A stretch of 64,000 nucleotides of DNA, from the NCBI GenBank assembly GCA_947502835.1, contig CANNBJ010000001.1, forward strand, positions 496,001 through 560,000, given 5' to 3'. Both the position numbers and the translations under genes were made by a program. Each line of letters starts with the position of its first letter. Within the stretch, counting starts at the first letter, position 1. The notes beneath the pieces were generated by a model, which saw only the letters and a program-made list of their open reading frames with translations, had not been told where the DNA came from and made no database searches. The stretch is from Bdellovibrionales bacterium (GTDB taxonomy: Bacteria; Bdellovibrionota; UBA1018; CAIMNF01). Shown piece after piece: positions 48,657-51,904 of the stretch.

Positions 48657-48734
48657 GGGAATCGATTTAACCCAATGAGAACGACGGATCAACGAGTTTT
48701 ATTAAATAAAGCCAATTTAGCCCGTCTCAAATCC

Positions 48735-49200
48735 TTATTTCCTGACAGACTTGGTACACGAAAACCCCTGGCCCGATACAACACAGGCATAGCCCGTGCT
48801 CTGAAGGAGAGCCGATGACTGCCAAGAGAGTATAAGTGGACTTTGTCCTGCCACGCACCTTGGTGGGGTATACCTACACTCGAGACTTTGCAATCCCTGC
48901 GGGTTCCGTACAACCGCCGCACTCTGAAAGGGATCGATCACATTGGGAAAACCATGCGGTTGTGTCGTACAGTTAAAATAAGTGCTTAACCCTACGTTTA
49001 CCACCAACCCGAAACCAGGGGGTCTCTGAAACTGATTCAGATTAAATTGATAGGTAGCATTGGCACTGGAATAGGGCATAGCCACACTATTCGCACATGG
49101 TACTGAAACCCCTTGAGCTTGCGCCTGAGACGAAATAAAGCCCCCTCAAACATCAAACCCAAAACAAACCCACACATCAATCCAGCCACGAGCAAAGCGC
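48735..49200 (-). pseudogene. Cys-containing secreted protein gene with apparent frameshift near its 5' end
   Basis: Mature-like ORF (...SSQAQAQGVSVPCANSVAMPYSS...CTKSVRK) lacks an in-frame start; the hydrophobic leader LLVAGLMCGFVLGLMFEG is in another frame, joined at a GGGGG run. Confidence 0.45.
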
Positions 49201-49218
49201 TTTCCCTGCGTTTGACGC

Positions 49219-49243
49219 GAGACCCAATTATTTGGAGGGTCTC
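49219..49243 (-). terminator. Hairpin at the 3' end of the last small secreted gene
   Basis: GAGACCC-tccaaataatt-GGGTCTC spanning the stop codon; no T-tract. Confidence 0.4.
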
Positions 49244-49452
49244 AAACCATTTTTCACAGTACCCGTCACAAGGGCACCGTTGACCCAAGTAGTACATGTG
49301 CCATCCGACAAGCACTGTGTTCTCGAACTGCCGCAGGGAACCGTGAAGCCATCCCCCTGACAGGTGTTCATAACCACGGTCCCCGGCAGGAGTCCGGCAG
49401 ATGCGCTTGATAAAGAGAACAGACTAAGAGCAAAACAAAACAAACTTCTCAT
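49228..49452 (-). CDS. Small secreted four-Cys protein, type A (copy 2)
   Basis: MRSLFCFALSLFSLSSASA signal; CQGDGFTVPCGSSRTQCLSDGTCTTWVNGALVTGTVK. Confidence 0.75.
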   Translation of the reverse strand: MRSLFCFALSLFSLSSASAGLLPGTVVMNTCQGDGFTVPCGSSRTQCLSDGTCTTWVNGALVTGTVKNGLRPSK

Positions 49453-49465
49453 GATCAATACTCCT

Positions 49466-49723
49466 CTACTTTGAAAGACCGGAACTTACTCTGCCACTCA
49501 CAACCCTGCCCCCGGAAAGAGCCACTTGGCAGGTACCATTGTCATTGCACGTCACACCAACCATCGAACAGTTAAATATCCCGCTGCCCTCATTGATTAC
49601 GCAAACCTTACGATTGCCGGAAGTGCTGACTGAACCCTGAATCGGCTCCGCAAAAGCAAAGCTACCGTATAAGGCAACCAAAACCAAGAAAAGCAACTTA
49701 CTCACCTTTAATTGAGACACCAT
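49466..49723 (-). CDS. Small secreted four-Cys protein, type B (copy 2)
   Basis: Signal peptide; VCVINEGSGIFNCSMVGVTCNDNGTCQVALSGGRVVSGRV. Confidence 0.75.
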   Translation of the reverse strand: MVSQLKVSKLLFLVLVALYGSFAFAEPIQGSVSTSGNRKVCVINEGSGIFNCSMVGVTCNDNGTCQVALSGGRVVSGRVSSGLSK

Positions 49724-49866
49724 GATCTCACCTCCTTTTTATTAAAGAACCAATGACAGTTCCTACTAACAAATCCCAGAAACAGCCCCATGCATCGGCG
49801 GATCAACATTCGCAATCGACCAAACACGAAACTCCTAAACTGAACTACCCAAAAAAAGGCTCCACT

Positions 49867-50097
49867 TCACTTCTGTGAGCCCTTGTTGGGCCTTACCGTA
49901 CCTTGAACTTGAATCCCATTGATCCAAACTGTGCATCTTGAACCCGAACATTCAACCCTACCTGAGGGATCGTCGCACCTAATTGAAAAATTTGTCCCCT
50001 CGCAAACCCCACCGCTGCCAACAACTCCGTGTACAAAATAAGCATGGGCCTCCCCGATAGAGAACGCCAAACCCAAGAAAATCACATATGACTTCAT
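49867..50097 (-). CDS. Small secreted four-Cys protein, type A (copy 1)
   Basis: Signal peptide; CEGTNFSIRCDDPSGRVECSGSRCTVWINGIQVQGTVR; AAGGAGAG RBS. Confidence 0.75.
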   Translation of the reverse strand: MKSYVIFLGLAFSIGEAHAYFVHGVVGSGGVCEGTNFSIRCDDPSGRVECSGSRCTVWINGIQVQGTVRPNKGSQK

Positions 50098-50106
50098 ATA
50101 CTCTCC

Positions 50107-50370
50107 TTATTTTTGAAGACTACTCTTGACCCGAACCGTTCCAGAAACCCTTCTCCCGTCCCGAAGAGCAACAGTACAAGATGAACCTACATCGCCGCAT
50201 GTCACGCCTGACATCGCGCAATCATACATGCCATGGGTGCCATTTCCTGTATCAACCCAACAATGTTTGCCCCCTTCACCATCGGTCCTCACTGATCCCA
50301 CCAACGGGGCGGCTTGAGCAGACCCACTCAAGGAACAGAACTCTAGAATGATCGCTAGAACAAAACCCAT
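50107..50370 (-). CDS. Small secreted four-Cys protein, type B (copy 1)
   Basis: Signal peptide; HCWVDTGNGTHGMYDCAMSGVTCGDVGSSCTVALRDGRRVSGTVR. Confidence 0.75.
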   Translation of the reverse strand: MGFVLAIILEFCSLSGSAQAAPLVGSVRTDGEGGKHCWVDTGNGTHGMYDCAMSGVTCGDVGSSCTVALRDGRRVSGTVRVKSSLQK

Positions 50371-50491
50371 ATCGTAAGTCTCCCTTGGACTCGATTTTCA
50401 CCCGCAATCCCCTGAAAATGAATGCATCATTTTGGACACATACAGAATAACGTTTGCGGAATCGCAAACACTTTCCTAAGATTCTCTTTCT

Positions 50492-51376
50492 ATGAAGCGG
50501 AAACAAAAATCAGAGCCGAATAATCTGAGCGCCAAGGGAGACAATTCGCTGCTGATCTGGCTACTTTCGAATTCACTTTCGATTTCAGACTTTTTTGCGC
50601 GACTCTTGAATGAAAAGCGCGCACGCAGACCGCGCTATTCCATGCGCTCGCTTGCCCGCGAACTGGGGCTTTCTCCGGCCATGACATCGCAGATTCTTTC
50701 AGGCAAACGAGGTTGCTCGCCGGAACTTCTGGAGAAAATTGCACTGCGCTTGAACCTTACCACTGAAGAAAAATCCATCCTCGAAATTTTAGCCGAACTG
50801 GGGAGAGCGAGAGGCAAGGTCAAGGAAACCCTCGAACAGCAGCTCTCCGGGATGCGTTTTTCAATTTCCCAGAAAACACTTCATCCGGAATTCATGAAGG
50901 GCTCTCACCGCAATCGTTGGTACTTTTGGTCACTCTATTCGGCATTCGGAATTGAAGGTATCGACAAAACCGCTGCCGCACTTTCCAAGGCCCTCAGGCT
51001 TCCGGCCGGTCTCATTCAGGACACACTCAAAGAGCTCTGCGCCCTTGGATGGATCAGACCCGGGCTCAATGGACATTACGCACTTGCTGAGGATGAGCAT
51101 CAACTCTATCGGGCCGAATTCCCACCCGTTGAACTCTGGGAACTCCGAGCCCACACCCTGAATCGCGTGCAAAAGCAAATCGAGGAGAGACATCAACACC
51201 AGGAAATCGGAATTGCGCACTTCCCTTTCAGACCTGAGCTGATGAGTAAGGTGGGAGAGGAGATGGACCGCTTTGTGGCACGATTAAAGAAGCTCGCCGA
51301 GCCACCCGAGAGAGCTACTGAGGTGTATTGCGCCTATATCCATGTATTCCCGCCAAAAGGGGACCACGAAGGGTAG
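50492..51376 (+). CDS. TIGR02147/DUF4423-like HTH regulatory protein
   Basis: N-terminal HTH SMRSLARELGLSPAMTSQILSGKRGCSPELLEKIALRLNLTTEE, winged C-terminal region. Confidence 0.75.
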   Translation: MKRKQKSEPNNLSAKGDNSLLIWLLSNSLSISDFFARLLNEKRARRPRYSMRSLARELGLSPAMTSQILSGKRGCSPELLEKIALRLNLTTEEKSILEILAELGRARGKVKETLEQQLSGMRFSISQKTLHPEFMKGSHRNRWYFWSLYSAFGIEGIDKTAAALSKALRLPAGLIQDTLKELCALGWIRPGLNGHYALAEDEHQLYRAEFPPVELWELRAHTLNRVQKQIEERHQHQEIGIAHFPFRPELMSKVGEEMDRFVARLKKLAEPPERATEVYCAYIHVFPPKGDHEG

Positions 51377-51451
51377 GATCCCTATCATTGCCAAAGCCCG
51401 ACTTGAATAATCTTCTAATTTAAGTTAGGTTCACCGCATGTTTACCGTATC

Positions 51452-51904
51452 TTGGTTTTGTTTTTGGCCACATCCACGCTTGCCGAGGCCGCTCCCGAAC
51501 TCCTCTGTTTTCAGGACTTTGTTGCTGAAACCGGCGGTGAAGTTTTTGATGCTTCCAGGCTTTTTGTCCGGGTCAAAACCTGCAGCTGCGGAACCTCAAT
51601 CTGCACCGTTGGAGCAAGTGGCGGTGGTTGGAACCCAGGAATCGAACTCCACGGTTCCCCCTACTGCGACGTCACATCCAATCCAGACGGAACCCTCTTC
51701 ATCAAGACTCGCGACTCTGAACTCTCCCTCAGTGTGGGAGAATCCGGGCCGCGGGATGACTATTTCAAGTCCTTCGTTCGCCCCTCTCAGGGCACCCTTC
51801 GCTATGATCAAGCAGGCCGGGCGCCTCGCTTCATTCCTCATCGCTTCAACTGTTATCTTGCAAACCCGTTCATCCGCGCACTTCCAGAGTGGAACGTAGA
51901 GTAG
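51452..51904 (+). CDS. Hypothetical secreted Cys-containing protein; start uncertain
   Basis: TTG start, hydrophobic leader VLFLATSTLAEA; ATG at 51438 is out of frame by one base. Confidence 0.5.
   Translation: MVLFLATSTLAEAAPELLCFQDFVAETGGEVFDASRLFVRVKTCSCGTSICTVGASGGGWNPGIELHGSPYCDVTSNPDGTLFIKTRDSELSLSVGESGPRDDYFKSFVRPSQGTLRYDQAGRAPRFIPHRFNCYLANPFIRALPEWNVE

What the first reader, a model, noticed from the sequence alone, without database searches (positions are those of the whole stretch)
49228..50370. Duplicated B-A bicistronic cassette of tiny secreted four-cysteine proteins
Four consecutive minus-strand genes encode 75-88 aa precursors with signal peptides and a shared pattern: G-[ST/V]-V near the mature N-terminus, C-x8-13-C-x6-8-C-x4-6-C, then a (W/A)-(I/V/L)-x-(N/D/G)-G-x-x-V-x-G-x-V tail ending in Lys. 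They fall into two alternating types (A: CT-x-W-[IV]-NG; B: DC[AS]M-x-GVTC...VAL-x-x-GR-x-VSG). Order is B1-A1-B2-A2 with 9-13 nt inside pairs and about 143 nt between pairs, which indicates duplication of a two-gene unit. I do not recognise the family. Candidates: disulfide-stabilised surface or predation effectors, antimicrobial mini-proteins, or a two-component secreted complex.
Basis: seen in the sequence. Interest (0 to 1): 0.78.

Follow-up and report, generated by a model that had tools for sequence, protein, structure and literature searches.

The report
Regulator-linked module of exported four-cysteine proteins
Four tiny exported proteins of an unrecognised family, made as two duplicated gene pairs beside their own probable switch gene, form one block that the nearest sequenced relative lacks; they look like optional tools for use outside the cell, but what they act on is unknown.

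Summary
Four minus-strand genes (B1-A1-B2-A2) encode 74-87-aa precursors with signal peptides and a shared four-cysteine core. B1/B2 (about 50% identical) and A1/A2 (about 42%) are the closest pairs, which fits duplication of a two-gene unit. Third codon positions differ most, as under purifying selection. Pfam, NCBIfam, PHROGs, PADLOC and PDB sequence searches give no match. In 374 genomes of the phylum only one congener, G007, has homologs: two single genes, not pairs. The genes lie divergent from a DUF4423/TIGR02147-type regulator, with two dyads in the 121-bp gap. In the closest relative (G012) exactly the block from a frameshifted fifth gene to the regulator's stop (about 48722-51377) is missing, while both neighbours are in place. 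G007's copies also lie in likely variable slots: between mutL and miaA (adjoining in five relatives) and beside tRNA-Leu. In congeners, 32 of 34 DUF4423 regulators examined are followed by an exported-protein gene. Best reading: an accessory regulator-plus-exported-protein module whose products are small disulfide-stabilised beta domains acting outside the inner membrane. Target, A-B binding and any toxicity are unproven.

The parts
50107..50370 (-). B1, 87-aa exported four-Cys protein (mature from about residue 21, APLVGSV...)
   Evidence: ORF, ribosome site, A-x-A site; 50% identical to B2; AF2 model of mature part: 5 strands, mean pLDDT 71, tail disordered
49867..50097 (-). A1, 76-aa exported four-Cys protein, 9 nt after B1
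   Evidence: 42% identical to A2; AF2 mean pLDDT 65.5, all beta
49466..49723 (-). B2, 85-aa exported four-Cys protein
   Evidence: clear ribosome site AAAAAGGAGGTG
49228..49452 (-). A2, 74-aa exported four-Cys protein (ATG start; TTG at 49458 also possible)
49848..49895 (-). terminator-like hairpin with T7 run at the end of A1, before B2 (candidate partial terminator splitting the two pairs)
   Evidence: fold -17.2 kcal/mol, z -2.4; not listed by the simple scan
48735..49210 (-). fifth gene downstream of A2; secreted-type start (...SSQAQA/QGVSVPC...) but the signal-peptide part is in another frame (TGA before GGGGG); broken gene or assembly error
   Evidence: no convincing relative in the taxonomic family
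50452..50469 (.). dyad GTTTGCG-GAAT-CGCAAAC in the divergent intergenic region, candidate operator; contains the only exact TTTGCGN4CGCAAA in the genome
50415..50433 (.). second dyad AAAATGA-ATGCA-TCATTTT in the same intergenic region
50492..51376 (+). divergent regulator, HTH plus DUF4423 (TIGR02147-like), the only DUF4423 gene found in this genome
   Evidence: PF14394 E 1.3e-12, over cut-off; TIGR02147 42.9 bits, under its cut-off of 50
48722..51377 (.). presence/absence block (fifth gene, A2, B2, A1, B1, regulator), absent from the syntenic locus of G012

Best explanation
This is an accessory module: a DUF4423/TIGR02147-type regulator and a divergently transcribed operon of small exported proteins. 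Inferred working: the regulator binds the divergent promoter region (dyads at 50415-50433 and 50452-50469) and controls both itself and the leftward operon. The B and A precursors are translated as adjacent pairs, exported by Sec and cut after A-x-A. Four cysteines then form two disulfides in the oxidising envelope, giving small beta domains with flexible, mildly basic tails. They act in the periplasm or outside the cell as binding proteins or effectors, the A and B types probably on one partner or on each other. Shown: genes, cysteine conservation, selection, duplication of the pair, divergent regulator, presence/absence as one block. Inferred: regulation, disulfides, location, A-B partnership, role.
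For: Four real, selected genes. All four Cys invariant across six homologs from two species. The block 48722-51377 is missing from G012, whose GDSL and exported-protein neighbours are in place with only about 80 unaligned nt between the matching flanks, so regulator and cassette differ between species as one piece. The regulator has no close relative in 374 genomes of the phylum. In congeners 14 of 14 and, by reading, 18 of 20 further DUF4423 genes are followed on the same strand by an exported-protein gene, mostly overlapping by 4 nt, so pairing of this regulator type with exported proteins is the local rule. Homologs in G007 lie between mutL and miaA, which adjoin in five relatives and have other genes between them in G004, and next to tRNA-Leu. 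Models are all-beta.
Against: No direct evidence of expression, export, disulfides or regulator binding. The dyads are only moderately unlikely (a 7-bp dyad in 111 of 2000 shuffles) and do not recur before other DUF4423 genes. The window regulator is diverged (TIGR02147 below cut-off) and lies divergent, unlike the usual same-strand arrangement. G007's copies have no DUF4423 regulator next to them. Models are of low to medium confidence with no significant fold match.
Confidence: 0.5

Rival explanations
1. Envelope proteins of the cell's own surface or periplasm (stress or coat components), not aimed at another organism; the duplication just raises dose or adds variety.
For: Sec-type signals, small beta domains and basic tails fit periplasmic or surface proteins; no secretion-system gene or recognised toxin lies in the block.
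Against: Very patchy: absent from the closest relative and from 11 of 13 sampled species of the genus, unlike ordinary envelope components.
Confidence: 0.22
2. Two-part antimicrobial or toxin-immunity pair: one type harms competitors or prey, the other protects the producer, with the second pair a diverged specificity.
For: Strict B-A pairing in two diverged copies; small disulfide-rich exported proteins; accessory distribution.
Against: A and B are homologous to each other and alike in size and Cys pattern, unusual for toxin and immunity protein; G007 has unpaired copies; no match to known bacteriocin or toxin families in Pfam or PADLOC.
Confidence: 0.12
3. Inhibitors of foreign enzymes (proteases, lysozymes), as many two-disulfide mini-proteins are.
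For: Size, two-disulfide design, variable loop between Cys1 and Cys2, tandem diversification.
Against: No sequence match to inhibitor families (best ACI44, E 0.11) or to PDB inhibitors.
Confidence: 0.13
4. Chance ORFs or decaying remnants.
For: The fifth gene of the block is frameshifted.
Against: Four intact genes with signal peptides, ribosome sites, conserved Cys, codon-position bias and homologs in another species.
Confidence: 0.03

Closest known systems
DUF4423 / TIGR02147 regulator family (Pfam PF14394, NCBIfam TIGR02147)
   Same: The regulator has the N-terminal HTH and C-terminal DUF4423 domain and sits next to exported-protein genes, as 32 of 34 examined congeneric DUF4423 genes do.
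   Different: Scores below the TIGR02147 cut-off, is divergent from its partners, and the partners show no evident relation to the larger exported proteins with Gly-rich mature starts (many GNGG/GHGG) seen elsewhere.
Small secreted cysteine-rich proteins of bacteria and fungi (general kind, from general knowledge)
   Same: Signal peptide, even number of conserved Cys, under 90 aa, tandem paralogs, patchy distribution.
   Different: No sequence relation to any named family in Pfam, NCBIfam, PHROGs, PADLOC or PDB.
Fibronectin type I module / molbindin OB fold
   Same: Weak best hits: fibronectin by profile (E 0.44), tungbindin by fold (E 0.78); also small and beta-rich.
   Different: Neither match is significant; treated as chance.

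Membership tests
DUF4423 (PF14394), for the regulator | Match to DUF4423 profile above the gathering score | tested here: met
   48.3 bits against 30, E 1.3e-12
DUF4423 (PF14394), for the regulator | N-terminal helix-turn-helix | tested here: met
   HTH_3 26.7 bits against 23
TIGR02147 (NCBIfam), for the regulator | Score above the curated cut-off | tested here: not met
   42.9 bits against 50; called TIGR02147-like only
Known exported Cys-rich families, for A and B | Profile match in Pfam, NCBIfam, PHROGs or PADLOC | tested here: not met
   No match near a cut-off
Two-peptide bacteriocin or toxin-immunity pair | Killing by one or both products and protection by the partner | not testable with these tools
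   Needs expression and killing assays
Two-peptide bacteriocin or toxin-immunity pair | Partner genes kept together across carriers | tested here: not met
   G007 has two unpaired homologs on different contigs

The most novel reading that the evidence does not exclude
DUF4423 regulators in this bacterial genus form a large, fast-changing set of 'one regulator plus its own exported protein' modules (0 to 21 DUF4423 genes per genome among nine checked). The window shows a compact divergent variant whose cargo is a new two-type, two-disulfide mini-protein pair used against other organisms.
Probability: 0.3. Interest if true: 0.68.

Novelty: new variant of a known kind. Interest (0 to 1): 0.45.

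Why it matters
It gives a testable unit: a regulator, its probable target operon and a natural empty site in a close relative. If the wider pattern holds, DUF4423 regulators, for which the held papers give no function, gain a concrete role as dedicated switches of exported proteins. The B/A family is an unrecognised protein family suited to structure work.

Tried and rejected
Broad scans of 85,462 species genomes with B and A patterns and of viral contigs with A found no relative; these find fairly close relatives only, so they do not prove absence. Phage records gave nothing for B1. Weak phylum hits at E 0.005-0.1 were read where they had a readable frame and rejected: signal-peptide-only, wrong frame, low-complexity or stop-containing. 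PDB fold matches had E of about 0.8 or more and were rejected. The operator motif was sought before 14 other DUF4423 genes without a match. The fifth gene has no convincing relative. Papers: none in the library holds the term TIGR02147; one mentions DUF4423. The organism was not identified; a Bdellovibrio-like lineage is a guess from its DUF4423-rich relatives.

Full report
What is there. Four minus-strand genes lie in the order B1 (50107-50370), A1 (49867-50097), B2 (49466-49723), A2 (49228-49452) with gaps of 9, 143 and 13 nt. Each has a ribosome site, a signal peptide with an A-x-A site, four cysteines in the mature part and a last Lys. B1/B2 are 50% and A1/A2 42% identical; A and B share the Cys pattern and the V-x-G end. 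A tree groups B1 with B2 (93/97) and, more weakly, A1 with A2 (64/85). Together with the alternating order this fits duplication of a B-A unit. The copies are old: of 32 identical residues in the B pair, 23 have different codons, and third positions differ most, so the proteins are held by selection.

How far the family reaches. No match in Pfam, NCBIfam, PHROGs, PADLOC or PDB sequences. A profile of the four found two homologs in G007 of the same genus. They keep all four Cys and a signal peptide but are single genes on different contigs. Nothing credible turned up in the other 372 genomes searched in the phylum; weak hits were read and rejected. Pattern scans of 85,462 species genomes found no relative.

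Surroundings. Upstream, divergent, is a regulator (50492-51376, plus) with HTH and DUF4423, just under the TIGR02147 cut-off. It is the only DUF4423 gene found in this genome, and no close relative exists in the phylum set. The 121-bp gap between it and B1 holds two 7-bp dyads; the one at 50452-50469 contains the genome's only exact TTTGCGN4CGCAAA. A terminator-like hairpin with T7 ends A1, so the second pair may be less expressed or have its own promoter. Downstream of A2 lies a fifth exported-type gene whose signal peptide is out of frame.

A presence/absence block. G012, whose MetG is 93% identical, has the same neighbours in the same order (DEAD-box helicase, GDSL protein, exported 150-aa protein, MetG), but only about 80 nt where the window has 48722-51377. 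The ends of the missing piece fall next to the stop of the fifth gene and right after the stop of the regulator. Regulator and cassette therefore differ between the two species as one unit; whether gained here or lost in G012 is not settled. In G007 one homolog sits between mutL and miaA, which adjoin in five relatives and are separated by other genes in G004. The other sits beside tRNA-Leu. So the family is found at variable or hotspot-like positions.

A wider pattern. Because the regulator type might hint at function, 34 DUF4423 genes of congeners were examined. All 14 nearest to the window's regulator are followed on the same strand by an exported-protein gene, mostly with a 4-nt overlap; of 20 more, 18 are by my reading of the listed N-termini (the automatic A-x-A rule there counted only 7 because it is too strict). 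Many of these proteins start their mature part with a Gly-rich GNGG or GHGG stretch. Nine congeneric genomes carry between 0 and 21 DUF4423 genes. The window's module is thus a divergent variant of a common pairing of this regulator type with exported proteins. In Bdellovibrio bacteriovorus one DUF4423 protein, Bd3700, is listed among predator proteins upregulated during growth within prey (PMC12546842); this is a lead only, since the window's organism is not identified.

Structure. Models of mature B1 (mean pLDDT 71) and A1 (65.5) are all-beta with a disordered tail. Fold searches gave nothing significant.

Judgement. The best-supported reading is an accessory, regulator-linked module of exported two-disulfide beta mini-proteins. 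The target, whether A binds B, and any toxic role are open. It is new as a family and as an arrangement, but of a recognisable kind.

Noticed in passing
L031-L044 and L094-L113 (congeners G002, G004, G007, G008, G011): 32 of 34 DUF4423/TIGR02147 regulator genes are followed on the same strand, mostly overlapping by 4 nt, by a gene for an exported protein, many with a GNGG/GHGG start of the mature part; eight of these proteins scanned have no Pfam family, and three of the first 14 carry HExxH.
   Followed up: partly
48735-49210 (minus): Exported-type gene with its signal peptide in another frame at a GGGGG run: broken gene or assembly error.
   Followed up: partly
L076 8546-9874 (G012): Between DEAD-box and GDSL genes G012 has about 1.3 kb with several small ORFs (one exported, Cys-containing) where the window has about 17 nt: a second variable slot in the same locus.
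   Followed up: no
L089 2126-5003 (G004): The mutL-miaA interval holds an unrelated set of genes in G004, including a carbonic-anhydrase-like one, so it is a variable slot in this genus.
   Followed up: partly
49219-49243 (minus): Perfect 7-bp inverted repeat GAGACCC...GGGTCTC across the stop codon of A2, without a T run.
   Followed up: no
51452-51904 (plus): Exported 150-aa Cys-containing protein without Pfam match, conserved in G012 (51%).
   Followed up: no
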